DNA of 23,149 nt from a virus. The stretch lies in IMG/VR virus record IMGVR_UViG_3300027867_000041, positions 1 to 23,149 of that record; one strand, given 5' to 3'. Below, in pieces: positions 2,841 through 15,505 of this stretch. The stretch's first letter is position 1. Each line of letters opens with the position of its first letter. A model generated the notes under the pieces. The model was not told the origin of the DNA. It saw only the letters and a list, made by a program, of their open reading frames with translations, and made no database searches. Position numbers and translations under genes: made by a program.

Positions 2841-3194
2841 ATGGCTGAAGAGTCAGTTGCTGGAGTTATTTCGGCTGAGATTCCCAAGCAAGTAGTAGGA
2901 CTGATTCCAGCTTCAATTCCACCGACTACAACAACTGAGCAGAATTTAGTAACTGCTGGACAAAGAAGAATAAACCTAATATGGGAGTGGACACAATCTA
3001 TAATCTCTGTGTCTGTTGTATTGGCTAATATGATAGTAGCAGTTTATGACGGAGTAGTAAATAAAGCTCCAGCATTTCCTACCGTCTTGTCGTCAGCACT
3101 CTTTCTAGTTGTCGGCTTTTATTTCTCTAGAACTAATCATTCTGCAATAGGTGGAGTCGGTGATAAGACGGCAACAATTTACGCAGGACGTTGA
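2841..3194 (+). CDS. Holin-like two-helix membrane protein, 117 aa
   Basis: A Pro/Thr-rich N-terminal arm (residues 1-38) precedes a basic QRRINLIWEW segment and two hydrophobic helices, about residues 50-69 (SIISVSVVLANMIVAVYD) and 80-95 (ALFLVVGFYF). A short C-terminal tail reads SRTNHSAIGGVGDKT. The pattern QRRxNLIWExTQ, membrane helix, loop, membrane helix, FGFYFxRTNH is one I associate with small phage inner-membrane proteins annotated as holins. The next gene, an exported phosphatase, starts immediately after its stop, and the endolysin lies about 2.6 kb downstream, which suits a lysis role. Membrane location is strongly suggested; hole formation is inference. Confidence 0.7.
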   Translation: MAEESVAGVISAEIPKQVVGLIPASIPPTTTTEQNLVTAGQRRINLIWEWTQSIISVSVVLANMIVAVYDGVVNKAPAFPTVLSSALFLVVGFYFSRTNHSAIGGVGDKTATIYAGR

Positions 3195-3662
3195 TTGACT
3201 AGGTTCTTAACGGCCGTTGCGACGGTATTATTCTATTCTACAATCCTCTCTGCACAACCGACCGTATTAGATCCTCCTAATCCAACCTGGAGTAATACTA
3301 ACGCAGCAAACATTGCTAGTTATATTCCAGTAGCCGCAAGCATCGTATATGATTCGTATAAGTCTTATAAGTCTGAAAACAGAAAACGAAGTTTTCTGAT
3401 GCAAGGAATAAAGACTGGAACTAACCTTGGAGCGGCCGAGGCTATTAAATTGTTAATTCACAGAATCAGACCTGATATGTCAGATAATAAATCATTTCCA
3501 TCAGAACACACTGAACTTAGTGCGATGGGAACTTCAATAGCAGTATCAATCCCATTGGCAGCCGGAACGGGCTATCTTCGGATGGCTGCAAACAAGCATT
3601 TCCTGACTGATACAATTACAGGATTGGGAATTGGTTTCCTTACAGGACGTTACATTAGATAG
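3195..3662 (+). CDS. Exported PAP2-superfamily phosphatase, 155 aa
   Basis: The TTG start abuts the previous stop and has AGGA six bases upstream. Residues 1-20 look like a signal peptide or anchor, with a likely cut near ILSA/QP. The three phosphatase motifs of the type-2 phosphatidic acid phosphatase family are visible: K85 with R92-P93 (KLLIHRIRPD), FPSEHT with S103 and H105 (canonical PSGH, here E replaces G), and R129-x5-H135-x3-D139 (LRMAANKHFLTD). All expected catalytic residues are present. Known substrates in the family are lipid phosphates such as undecaprenyl pyrophosphate, phosphatidate and lipid A, acted on at the periplasmic membrane face. At 155 aa it is shorter than typical six-helix members. 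Its place beside a holin-like gene suggests an envelope role in lysis or superinfection control; the substrate cannot be read from the sequence. Confidence 0.8.
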   Translation: MTRFLTAVATVLFYSTILSAQPTVLDPPNPTWSNTNAANIASYIPVAASIVYDSYKSYKSENRKRSFLMQGIKTGTNLGAAEAIKLLIHRIRPDMSDNKSFPSEHTELSAMGTSIAVSIPLAAGTGYLRMAANKHFLTDTITGLGIGFLTGRYIR

Positions 3663-3691: not shown

Positions 3692-3889
3692 ATGAATTGG
3701 ACAGCACTTCTACAAGTCGTCTTGAATGTATTCGAAAAAAATCCACAATTGGCTGAAACTCTTCTCACTACTCTATTTAGTTTATTTGCTAATAATCCTC
3801 CGCTAGTTGCTAAAGCCGTTCAGGTCGGATTAGCTCATGCTTCTGCAATAGCTCCGGCAGCTCATGTAGTTGAGGTTAAAGCGGCATGA
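3692..3889 (+). CDS. Small hydrophobic/amphipathic protein, 65 aa
   Basis: A good SD (AGGAG within GAAAGGAGCGAGG) precedes the ATG. The product begins MNWTALLQVVLNVFEKNPQ and is dominated by Leu, Ala and Val with few charges, giving amphipathic helices rather than one clean membrane span. The stop overlaps the next start (ATGA), so it is translationally coupled to the 47-aa membrane protein. Such small hydrophobic proteins in a lysis neighbourhood may be membrane-acting, but no family is recognised. Confidence 0.65.
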   Translation: MNWTALLQVVLNVFEKNPQLAETLLTTLFSLFANNPPLVAKAVQVGLAHASAIAPAAHVVEVKAA

Positions 3890-4029
3890 ATATGCATCTT
3901 CTCTTGTTAGTGTTTGCATTCGTATTATTTGTTTTAGCAGCTATTCCATTCACTCCGACTGAACCCTATTGGAATAGACTCTGTGCAGCAGGACTGGCTT
4001 GTTGGGTGGCTGCTAGTTTATTTGGATAA
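3886..4029 (+). CDS. Small membrane protein, 47 aa
   Basis: The start overlaps the preceding stop as ATGA. The product has a hydrophobic helix at about residues 4-22 (HLLLLVFAFVLFVLAAIPF), a short polar loop (TPTEPYWNRL), and a second hydrophobic stretch at 33-46 ending with LFG. Tiny two-helix proteins with a Leu-rich first helix, a Pro-containing loop and an A-G-LA-W second helix are common, unnamed phage membrane proteins. An accessory lysis role is plausible from context but unproven. Confidence 0.65.
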   Translation: MNMHLLLLVFAFVLFVLAAIPFTPTEPYWNRLCAAGLACWVAASLFG

Positions 4030-5796: not shown

Positions 5797-5855
5797 TAGT
5801 TTGAGACGACGTGACAGAGAGAAGCGGGAATGAACGTAGGAAAGTGATAAGAAGA

Positions 5856-6245
5856 ATGCCAAAGTATCCTCAGACTGTAATTGATTTGGGGAAAGCAATT
5901 GCACATGCTGAAGGTTTTGGTGTTCCCGGCACTGTTCCAACTAGGGCTCATAATCCGGGTGATCTGAAAATCCCTAACTGGAATGGTGCCGTTACAGGCA
6001 CGGAAGGCATTTCTGTATTCCTAACTGATGAACAAGGCTGGGATGCTCTGTATGATCAGCTCTTAAGAATTCAAGTTGGAAATTCTCATGTTTATAGATT
6101 AGAGATGACATTTACTGAGTTCTCTAGACACTGGACTGATACACAAGAAACTAACTGGATAGACAATGTAATGTATTTATTGCAATCATTAGGTCATTCA
6201 GTTGATGAACAGACAAAACTTGGTGATTACTTTAGCAATGGTTAA
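5856..6245 (+). CDS. Lysozyme-like murein hydrolase (probable endolysin)
   Basis: The 129-aa product from ATG 5856 starts MPKYPQTVIDLGKAIAHAEG. E19 in AHAEGFG is placed as the catalytic Glu of lysozyme-superfamily transglycosylases. It is followed by RAHNPGDLK (residues 30-38), the equivalent of the NNPGNL motif in phage muramidases, then TEGISVFLTDEQGWDALYDQL, where F-x-T/D...GW-AL-x-QL is also typical. No signal peptide is seen, consistent with release through a holin. GTG 5811 and GTG 5844 are in-frame alternative starts; the conserved part begins after 5856. It follows the Ig-like gene and lies 12 nt before terL. A virion-associated hydrolase is the main alternative. Confidence 0.75.
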   Translation: MPKYPQTVIDLGKAIAHAEGFGVPGTVPTRAHNPGDLKIPNWNGAVTGTEGISVFLTDEQGWDALYDQLLRIQVGNSHVYRLEMTFTEFSRHWTDTQETNWIDNVMYLLQSLGHSVDEQTKLGDYFSNG

Positions 6246-6257
6246 CCAGCGAAGCTG

Positions 6258-7967
6258 ATGCCTACAAATCTAGCTAACGGAATAGAACTTGGAGATCCTG
6301 GCAACGGCTTCTATGAAGACTATCTCAGAGAAAGAAATATTAAACCACATCCAGTTCAGGAACAGCTTTTAACTCTTCCAGATGAAATCTTTGAAGCCCT
6401 ATATGGAGGAGCTGCTTATGGAGGAAAGAGTTGGATTCTTACGTTGCTCCCGCTATTTCGTGGATTCTACAAATTTAGGGGTTATAAAGGAATTATACTT
6501 AGAAACAAATTCCCAGACTTGGAAAGAGAGATAATACGTCTTTCTAAAGAATATTATCCAAAAACTGGAGCAAAGTATAATGAACAAAAACATAGCTGGG
6601 AATGGCCAGAGTACAACTCATATCAGGATTTCGGACACGTTCAGCATAGTAGTGATATTGCTATGTATGATTCTAGCCAATATAACTATTGTTCTTTCGA
6701 TGAGCTCACGCATTTTTCTGCTTATCCATATCATTATATGGTTGGTTCTCGTGTTCGTCCTTCGTCATCATTTAACATTGCAATCGTCAGAAACGGTTCG
6801 AATCCCGGAGGAGTAGGCCAAACATTTGTTTATGATAGATTCGTTAAGCCATTCGAAGATGGTAATAGAATCATTCGTGACAAGTCTACAGGTCTTCTAC
6901 GGATATTCATTCCAGCTAAAGCTGAAGATAATCCTTATGGAATGGAATACGATCCGTTATATGTTAAGAAACTCGAGATCCTTAAGACAGTCTCCGAAGC
7001 AGAATATAGAGCAAAAAGATTTGGCGACTGGCATGCATTTAAAGGCTCCGTTTTTACTACATTCAGACCACTTAGATTTCCAGGTGAGCCAGATAACGCA
7101 CTGCATGTTATTAAACGATTTCAAATACCTGAATGGTGGCCAAGAGTACTGTCAATTGACTGGGGAAAACGGGCAATGTGCCATGCAATGTGGATTGCAA
7201 TTTCTCCAAATCATAGAGCTTATATCTACAGAGAACGAGCTTGGTATAACAAGGACATAAGTCAATGGGCTAATGAGATTAGAGAACTTGTATATGAGAA
7301 TAGTGAAACAATTCTTCAGACCACACTTTGTGGGAGTGCTTGGCAGAGTCGAGGTGGAGAATTGATTTGTGATGAGTTCCAGCGTTATTCTAGATTGGTT
7401 CCTTCTTCATCGGAGAACTCTCCTGGTTCCAGGGTGGCTGGATTGCAATTAATACATGACTATTTGAGGTGGGAGAAAGTTGCTTCATTAAAGTCAAAAG
7501 GTGAGTTCTATGATATGCAATTAGCTCAGGGAATATATAGGAAATACGGGCCGGTCGCACTGGAGGCATATAAGAAACAATTCTATGATGAACCAGAAGA
7601 AGATAATCTTCCAGTTCTACAAATCTTCGAAGAGTGCAAAGTTTTAATTGATACAATTCCAATGGCCGTTTATGCCGAGGATAAACCGGGCCGTCCTGCG
7701 GAGGATATTGCTGAATTTGAAGGAGATGATCCTATTGATAACTTGAGATATGCCTGCAAGACTATTAAACGATATTTAGCCGGTGAGATTTCCGGTTTGG
7801 ACTTAGCGGCCAAGAAACAACTAGTAATGACTGATTATGGAGTAGATAATGATACAACTAGAATGTATAGAAGACTAGAAGCAATTGAGATGCATGACCA
7901 TCATACTCTTCAGGATTGTATTCCTGTTAGCCGTCGAAGTAGATTTGCAAGGAGGATGGTGCATTAA
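6258..7967 (+). CDS. terL: Terminase large subunit
   Basis: This 569-aa protein is the ATP-driven DNA packaging motor and headful or cos nuclease. The ATPase domain has a Walker A at residues 50-58 (GGAAYGGKS), an LRNKFPDLER adenine/arginine-type segment after it, a Walker B at 144-149 (YCSFDE) with catalytic Glu, and a coupling-like SNPGG at 181-185. The RNase-H-like nuclease domain starts near 295, with D301 in LSIDWGKR as the first metal ligand and DDPIDNLR (490-496) supplying the last Asp. Length and motif order are normal. It is followed by a stop-start overlap (TAATG) with the next small gene. The extra C-terminal 75 residues are basic and Arg-rich at the end (SRRSRFARR), possibly for portal or DNA contact. 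Confidence 0.95.
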   Translation: MPTNLANGIELGDPGNGFYEDYLRERNIKPHPVQEQLLTLPDEIFEALYGGAAYGGKSWILTLLPLFRGFYKFRGYKGIILRNKFPDLEREIIRLSKEYYPKTGAKYNEQKHSWEWPEYNSYQDFGHVQHSSDIAMYDSSQYNYCSFDELTHFSAYPYHYMVGSRVRPSSSFNIAIVRNGSNPGGVGQTFVYDRFVKPFEDGNRIIRDKSTGLLRIFIPAKAEDNPYGMEYDPLYVKKLEILKTVSEAEYRAKRFGDWHAFKGSVFTTFRPLRFPGEPDNALHVIKRFQIPEWWPRVLSIDWGKRAMCHAMWIAISPNHRAYIYRERAWYNKDISQWANEIRELVYENSETILQTTLCGSAWQSRGGELICDEFQRYSRLVPSSSENSPGSRVAGLQLIHDYLRWEKVASLKSKGEFYDMQLAQGIYRKYGPVALEAYKKQFYDEPEEDNLPVLQIFEECKVLIDTIPMAVYAEDKPGRPAEDIAEFEGDDPIDNLRYACKTIKRYLAGEISGLDLAAKKQLVMTDYGVDNDTTRMYRRLEAIEMHDHHTLQDCIPVSRRSRFARRMVH

Positions 7968-14758: not shown

Positions 14759-15505
14759 ATGAAACAAAAAAAGATTTTAGTGGGCTTGTCAACTGGTGAA
14801 CACATTCGTAGGGCTGAGTTTCTGCCATCATTCATAGGCTTGATGCGGCCAGAGAATTGTTTTACAGCAACAGTTCATGGTCAATCACCTGCTAAATCAA
14901 GAAATCTGCTAATAGATAGAGCTATAGAAAATGATTGTACACACATCCTATTGCTCGACGATGATATGATTCCTCCGTCAGATACATTGATAAAACTAGT
15001 TGAGCACAATAAAGATGTCGTGTCGGCATTATATCTTTTGAGATCATTTCCACATAGACCTGCACTTTTCGATAAAGCATACGAAAACGGCAAGTGTAAA
15101 TTCATGTCTCTCACTCCTGAACTTTCAGGACTAGTCGAAGGAGTGAATTGCGGATTAGGCTGTGTTTTAATTGCAACTAGAGTGTTTGAGAAGATGGAAA
15201 GACCTTATGTAAGATTGGGAGAATTAGAACAGGATGAGTGGTGTGATGATGTAGGATTCTTCAACCGAGTTAAGAAAGCAGGTTTTAAGGTATTTTGTGA
15301 CCTTGATTGTCCAGTTGGACATATGACTAATTTAACTATTTGGCCGGAAAAAGTTAACGGTGTATGGTTAACGAATTACAAACATCCTGATGGTAATATT
15401 CATATTGCACAGAATATATTAACTGATGCACAGATTAAAGAACAAGAAGAAAAGAATGACGCTTTATCATTAAAATCACGCAAACATTCTCTGTCTCACG
15501 TTTAG
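14759..15505 (+). CDS. GT-A fold glycosyltransferase, 248 aa
   Basis: This looks like a nucleotide-sugar-dependent glycosyltransferase of the GT2-like class. After an initial strand (KKILVGLST) come SPAKSRNLLIDRAIE (residues 43-57), then HILLLDDDMIPP (63-73) with the metal-binding D67-D68-D69, VVSALYLLRS (87-96), a Gly-rich acceptor loop GVNCGLGCVLIATRVFEKM, and D159-E160-W-C-D163-D164 followed by FNRVKKAGFKVFCDLDCPVGH with H188. This DxD, late acidic pair and final VGH order is classic for GT-A enzymes. The C-terminus is charged and helical. It lies among virion genes between a decoration-like and a fibre-like gene, so glycosylation of a virion protein is an attractive inference; DNA modification is the alternative. 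No SD except in the hairpin loop. Confidence 0.85.
   Translation: MKQKKILVGLSTGEHIRRAEFLPSFIGLMRPENCFTATVHGQSPAKSRNLLIDRAIENDCTHILLLDDDMIPPSDTLIKLVEHNKDVVSALYLLRSFPHRPALFDKAYENGKCKFMSLTPELSGLVEGVNCGLGCVLIATRVFEKMERPYVRLGELEQDEWCDDVGFFNRVKKAGFKVFCDLDCPVGHMTNLTIWPEKVNGVWLTNYKHPDGNIHIAQNILTDAQIKEQEEKNDALSLKSRKHSLSHV

What the first reader, a model, noticed from the sequence alone, without database searches (positions are those of the whole stretch)
3195..3662. Phage-encoded exported PAP2 phosphatase next to a holin-like gene
All PAP2 catalytic residues are present (K85, R92, S103, H105, R129, H135, D139), with Glu replacing Gly in the PSGH motif, and a signal-like N-terminus. It is translationally abutted to a holin-like gene. 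Acting on undecaprenyl pyrophosphate or lipid A at the periplasmic face could disturb wall precursor recycling at lysis, or alter the surface to block superinfection. I do not know this as an established phage lysis component.
Basis: partly seen in the sequence, partly recalled or inferred. Interest (0 to 1): 0.62.

Follow-up and report, generated by a model that had tools for sequence, protein, structure and literature searches.

The report
Phage-only miniature exported PAP2 phosphatase
A soil phage carries a shortened, exported phosphatase of the PAP2 family; its relatives form a branch found so far only in viral contigs and often sit beside or fused to phage lysis-type genes, which suggests (but does not prove) that phages use it on the host envelope late in infection.

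Summary
ORF 3195-3662 (155 aa, TTG start directly after the TGA of the previous gene) has a signal peptide and every PAP2 catalytic residue. It passes Pfam's PAP2 cut-off, and a 45-sequence alignment gives a confident PAP2-like model whose best PDB matches are B. subtilis PgpB and A. aeolicus LpxE. The catalytic residues are conserved in phage relatives and the gene is under purifying selection. New here: it belongs to a clade of shortened PAP2 proteins (100/100 support) found only in viral contigs. Compared with long bacterial relatives it lacks about 10 residues between motifs C2 and C3 and the C-terminal tail, has Glu in 'SEHT', and has no membrane-grade helix after the signal peptide. E. 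coli UppP YbjG has Asp at the same site, so Glu is not anomalous. The two-TM neighbour is real but its holin role is unproven, and its family usually lacks PAP2. Two other lineages place PAP2 directly behind a SleB-type cell-wall hydrolase and another fuses it to a TM/coiled-coil protein; two lineages place it among replication genes. Best reading: an accessory, late periplasmic phosphatase acting on envelope lipid phosphates, probably the undecaprenyl carrier. Substrate and effect on lysis are untested.

The parts
3195..3662 (+). miniature exported PAP2 phosphatase gene (155 aa, TTG start)
   Evidence: Pfam PAP2 above cut-off; AF2 pLDDT 88.3, pTM 0.79; Foldseek to 5jki/6ebu; dN/dS 0.17-0.23
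3195..3254 (+). signal peptide (aa 1-20, likely cleavage after LSA), no lipobox Cys
   Evidence: sequence; all full-length phage relatives have a matching N-terminal hydrophobic stretch
3447..3473 (+). PAP2 motif C1: K85-x6-R92-P93
3498..3509 (+). PAP2 motif C2: P102-S103-E104-H105 (Glu at the Gly position)
   Evidence: PSDH in E. coli YbjG
3579..3611 (+). PAP2 motif C3: R129-x5-H135-x3-D139; only 23 residues lie between H105 and R129
2841..3194 (+). two-TM membrane protein (117 aa), holin-like topology, function unproven; its stop TGA abuts the PAP2 start
   Evidence: family in 35 viral contigs; directly followed by a SleB-type hydrolase in L120
3692..3889 (+). 65-aa protein of unknown function, conserved in the close lineage
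3886..4029 (+). 47-aa hydrophobic membrane protein, 98-100% conserved in the close lineage
5811..6245 (+). candidate peptidoglycan hydrolase / lysin (weak homology)
   Evidence: PHROG 873 'endolysin' E=6e-4; 30% to 'lytic tail protein' of Tunturiibacter phage Tunturi_5, E=1e-5; no Pfam hit
6258..7967 (+). terminase large subunit, marks the late operon
   Evidence: PHROG 979 E=2.3e-27

Best explanation
The gene encodes a catalytically intact, minimal PAP2-superfamily phosphatase that is exported and works at the periplasmic face of the cytoplasmic membrane late in infection. It is an accessory gene that phages tend to place in or near the lysis part of the late operon. Most likely mechanism: it removes phosphate from an envelope lipid phosphate reachable from that side, most plausibly the undecaprenyl carrier (C55-PP or C55-P), upsetting carrier recycling while the lysin and membrane proteins act. 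Shown: PAP2 sequence and predicted fold, signal peptide, conserved active site, purifying selection, phage-only clade, lysis-type neighbours in several lineages. Inferred: late timing (from operon position), membrane-face location, substrate, and benefit to lysis.
For: Pfam PAP2 above cut-off. Profile of 45 relatives hits LpxE 3e-13, B. subtilis PgpB 8e-13 and human phospholipid phosphatases, with acid phosphatases far weaker. AF2 model pLDDT 88.3; Foldseek top hits 5jki and 6ebu, probability 1.00. Catalytic residues invariant in the first 11 phage relatives. dN/dS 0.17-0.23. Phage clade 100/100. Lysis-type neighbours: abutting two-TM gene in the window lineage; SleB-type hydrolase (PF07486, 45.8 bits) 11 nt upstream in G007; SleB-type hydrolase (63 bits) with 1-nt TGATG overlap in L156; in-frame TM/coil fusion followed by small membrane proteins in L085-L087. 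The two-TM family is itself directly followed by a SleB hydrolase in L120. E. coli PAP2 enzymes PgpB, YbjG and LpxT dephosphorylate C55-PP on the outer side of the membrane (PMC4641660).
Against: Two lineages (G005, G006) carry the gene among replication/nucleotide genes and two (G004, G010) at the end of the late operon. The two-TM family usually occurs without PAP2. The mature protein has no TM-grade helix (max hydropathy 1.2 against 2.3-2.4 in PgpB/YbjG), unlike known C55-PP phosphatases. Converting C55-PP to C55-P alone would help wall synthesis rather than stop it. No substrate or phenotype data; host unknown; the lysin in the window is only weakly identified.
Confidence: 0.38

Rival explanations
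1. A soluble periplasmic acid phosphatase (working like class A non-specific acid phosphatases) that releases phosphate from nucleotides or sugar phosphates for phage or host use; position near lysis genes is incidental.
For: Signal peptide, no TM-grade helix after it, GRAVY about -0.1; Foldseek also finds class A acid phosphatases at probability about 0.9; placement among replication/nucleotide genes in G005 and G006.
Against: Profile matches to acid phosphatases are about ten orders of magnitude weaker than to lipid phosphatases; direct coupling to cell-wall hydrolases and fusion to a membrane protein in some lineages.
Confidence: 0.27
2. A surface-modifying phosphatase (lipid A or other glycolipid phosphate) that blocks superinfection by related phages or alters the host surface.
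For: LpxE is among the nearest solved relatives; long relatives in other viral contigs sit in a metallophosphatase-PAP2-glycosyltransferase cassette, which fits lipid/glycan modification.
Against: Those long forms are a separate branch; late-operon placement fits poorly with early exclusion; A. aeolicus LpxE has Asp at the C2 His position (SGDT) whereas this protein keeps His; a host outer membrane is not established.
Confidence: 0.17
3. A passive cargo gene (moron) with no role in lysis or exclusion, moved between phages by chance.
For: Patchy presence; varied positions.
Against: Purifying selection, a deep phage-only clade with shared architecture and repeated lysis-type neighbours.
Confidence: 0.13

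Closest known systems
PgpB / YodM of Bacillus subtilis (PDB 5jki), PAP2 lipid phosphate phosphatase
   Same: PAP2 core, same catalytic residues and order; best Foldseek hit
   Different: integral membrane enzyme, over 200 aa; here 155 aa, no TM-grade helix after the signal peptide, shorter C2-C3 segment
YbjG / PgpB / LpxT (E. coli PAP2-type C55-PP phosphatases)
   Same: PAP2 active site facing the periplasm; YbjG has an acidic residue in PSDH, like PSEH here
   Different: multi-TM (hydropathy max 2.3-2.4), 33-37 residues between C2 His and C3 Arg instead of 23; activity on C55-PP shown there, unknown here
LpxE lipid A 1-phosphatase (Aquifex aeolicus, PDB 6ebu)
   Same: fold and profile similarity
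   Different: SGDT instead of SEHT at C2; membrane enzyme; no lipid A evidence here
Unnamed bacterial signal-peptide PAP2 proteins of 175-200 aa (Sphingomonadales, Vibrio, Bacteroidota, Comamonadaceae)
   Same: closest cellular relatives by sequence; same motifs and signal peptide
   Different: about 10 residues longer between C2 and C3, extra C-terminal tail, mostly Gly or Asn rather than Glu in C2; separate clade
Class A non-specific acid phosphatases (PhoN/PhoC)
   Same: exported, soluble, PAP2 fold
   Different: longer, weak profile match

Membership tests
PAP2 superfamily (PF01569) | Score above Pfam gathering cut-off | tested here: met
   31.3 bits against 27.2
PAP2 superfamily (PF01569) | Three motifs KX6RP, PSxH, RX5HX3D with catalytic residues | tested here: met
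PAP2 superfamily (PF01569) | PAP2 helical fold | tested here: met
   AF2 pLDDT 88.3; Foldseek top hits are PAP2 enzymes, best E=2.5e-3, probability 1.00
PAP2 superfamily (PF01569) | Phosphatase activity | not testable with these tools
   needs an enzyme assay
PAP2-type undecaprenyl pyrophosphatase (PgpB/YbjG/BcrC) | Several transmembrane helices | tested here: not met
   max hydropathy 1.2 against 2.3-2.4
PAP2-type undecaprenyl pyrophosphatase (PgpB/YbjG/BcrC) | C55-PP phosphatase activity | not testable with these tools
   needs an assay
Lipid A 1-phosphatase LpxE | NCBIfam equivalog match | tested here: not met
   no NCBIfam hit for the window protein
Phage holin (two-TM neighbour) | Two or more TM segments in a small protein | tested here: met
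   two segments of 1.7
Phage holin (two-TM neighbour) | Match to a known holin family | tested here: not met
   no Pfam, NCBIfam or INPHARED match; PHROG 'membrane protein' E=0.056 only
Phage lysis component (PAP2 gene) | Consistent linkage to lysis genes across lineages | tested here: inconclusive
   direct in the window lineage, G007, L156, L085-L087; absent in G005, G006; unclear elsewhere

The most novel reading that the evidence does not exclude
A phage-specific, miniaturised periplasmic PAP2 enzyme that dephosphorylates the undecaprenyl carrier (or another envelope lipid) as a dedicated accessory step of host lysis: an enzymatic lysis component beyond holin, endolysin and spanin.
Probability: 0.2. 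Interest if true: 0.82.

Novelty: new variant of a known kind. Interest (0 to 1): 0.52.

Why it matters
Phage lysis is described in terms of holins, endolysins, spanins and single-gene inhibitors of wall synthesis. A conserved phage-only phosphatase lineage coupled to cell-wall hydrolases would add a lipid-phosphate chemistry step and a new place to look for wall-carrier inhibitors. Even if its role is different, it is the smallest PAP2 architecture met in this work and appears to lack membrane helices, which makes it a tractable protein for structure and substrate work.

Tried and rejected
AF2 with only four close relatives failed (pLDDT 41) and was replaced by the 45-row alignment. The only INPHARED hit for the protein, MT838090 'Bacteriophage sp.', looks like Bacteroidales chromosomal DNA (dgkA-like gene, two-component system and TolC-like gene around it) and was not counted as a phage relative. 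The first scan of bacterial genomes with a narrow alignment found nothing; the second, with a broader one, found 48, and those measured are the long form. Ten literature searches found no paper linking PAP2 to phage lysis; hits were phage names (PaP2) or host genes; only open-licence PMC papers were searchable. The idea that Glu in PSEH signals an altered or dead enzyme was dropped because it is clade-wide and YbjG has Asp. An internal start separating PAP2 from the TM/coil part in L085-L087 was looked for; TTG codons exist but none with a convincing ribosome-binding site. A formal test of linkage to lysins was not possible; a rough hand estimate (one lysin in about 50 genes, about 14 lineages, 2 directly downstream) gives a chance of about 0.03, ignoring shared ancestry.

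Full report
Observation. It starts with TTG directly after the TGA of the 117-aa upstream gene, with AGGA six bases upstream. Pfam PAP2 scores 31.3 bits against a cut-off of 27.2. The window is a virus record with terminase and major head protein matches.

Relatives. Scans of viral contigs found the same gene in the same order in a 35-kb contig 99.99% identical over the 11.7 kb compared (G001) and in L003, L004 and L005, and more distant relatives in L013-L020, L085-L087, L096, L097, L156 and L160. In the first eleven phage sequences the invariant positions include E77, K80, R87-P88-D89, S91-D92, S98, H100, R125, H131 and D135 in L014 numbering; Glu in SEHT/SEHS occurs in ten of the eleven, Met in L015. 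L156 keeps SEHT but has one extra residue around the C3 His. Against L004 and L005 dN/dS is 0.17 and 0.23.

A phage-only clade. Bacterial relatives are mostly 175-200 aa, have 33 residues or more between the C2 His and C3 Arg, and many carry a C-terminal tail ending in an aromatic residue. The phage proteins lack about ten residues there and lack the tail. In a tree of 55 sequences the phage forms and L160 make one group with 100/100 support, apart from the bacterial forms and from long forms in other viral contigs. L160 lies inside that group but has a longer gap (31), so shortness is not perfectly fixed. The only-in-viral-contigs statement rests on the collections and search patterns used here.

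Fold and location. With 45 sequences AF2 gives pLDDT 88.3 and pTM 0.79. Foldseek's best solved matches are B. subtilis PgpB (5jki; E 2.5e-3, probability 1.00) and A. aeolicus LpxE (6ebu); the profile of the same alignment matches LpxE at 3e-13 and PgpB at 8e-13, with class A acid phosphatases near 5e-3. After the signal peptide the window protein reaches only 1.23 in 19-residue hydropathy, against 2.37 for PgpB and 2.32 for YbjG. It is therefore more likely peripheral or soluble in the periplasm, or held by an uncleaved signal anchor, than a multi-TM enzyme. The gap between C2 His and C3 Arg is 23, against 33 in YbjG and 37 in PgpB, and YbjG has PSDH, so an acidic residue at the Gly position is compatible with an active enzyme.

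Neighbours. In the window lineage the order is two-TM protein, PAP2, 65-aa protein, 47-aa membrane protein, structural genes, weak lysin candidate, terminase. In G007 a SleB-type cell-wall hydrolase (PF07486, 45.8 bits) ends 11 nt before PAP2. In L156 another SleB-type hydrolase (63 bits) overlaps the PAP2 start by one base, TGATG. In L085-L087 PAP2 is the C-terminal part of one ORF with a TM segment and coiled coil, followed by small proteins including a two-TM one (Thivi_2564 family in L085). Others differ: G005 and G006 place it among replication and nucleotide genes, G004 and G010 at the end of the late operon behind a large virion-type protein, L096 and L097 behind the terminase. The two-TM family occurs in 35 viral contigs; among the contigs tested only the window lineage has PAP2 beside it, while L120 has a SleB-type hydrolase directly after it. 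PAP2 is thus an accessory gene that tends to land in the lysis region, not an obligate holin partner.

Mechanism. Known E. coli PAP2 enzymes PgpB, YbjG and LpxT dephosphorylate C55-PP on the outer side of the membrane (PMC4641660). An exported PAP2 domain placed beside wall-degrading genes is best read as acting on envelope lipid phosphates late in infection, the undecaprenyl carrier being the most accessible. Going from C55-PP to C55-P would help wall synthesis; a harmful effect would need C55-P or another substrate, so this step is inference. A soluble acid phosphatase and a surface-modifying exclusion enzyme remain live rivals.

Verdict. The gene is real, PAP2 membership is met on sequence and predicted fold, and the clade and its architecture are a new variant of a known family. 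The lysis hypothesis gains circumstantial support and remains unproven.

Noticed in passing
L085 7737-8468, L086 6786-7544, L087 7719-8462: PAP2 domain fused in frame behind an N-terminal TM segment and coiled coil; G007 encodes a similar-looking TM/coil protein as a separate gene (L073 13216-13698), but phmmer did not link the two.
   Followed up: partly
L147-L149, L151 around the match: Viral contigs with a three-gene cassette in L148, L149 and L151: calcineurin-like phosphoesterase, long-form PAP2, family 4 glycosyltransferase (L147 shows the first two), suggestive of lipid or glycan modification.
   Followed up: partly
35 viral loci, e.g. L112-L145: Widespread small membrane protein family with 'GQRKINLIWEYTQ...GFYFSRTNHAAIGGIG', often next to other small membrane proteins; holin candidate without a named family.
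   Followed up: partly
L006 (MT838090.1): GenBank record named 'Bacteriophage sp.' looks like Bacteroidales chromosome: dgkA-like gene beside a long PAP2 gene, two-component system, TolC-like gene.
   Followed up: partly
L045 5010-5570 and L048 2057-2590: Bacterial relatives with SFPSDT in place of the C2 His; A. aeolicus LpxE also lacks it (SGDT).
   Followed up: no
L018 1140-1376, L156 2553-2789: A 78-aa protein of unknown function sits just before PAP2 (L018) or before the lysin-PAP2 pair (L156); similar small proteins lie downstream of PAP2 in G008 and G011.
   Followed up: partly
window 14759-15505: Glycosyltransferase-like gene shortly after the major head protein gene (PHROG 1574/12406).
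   Followed up: no
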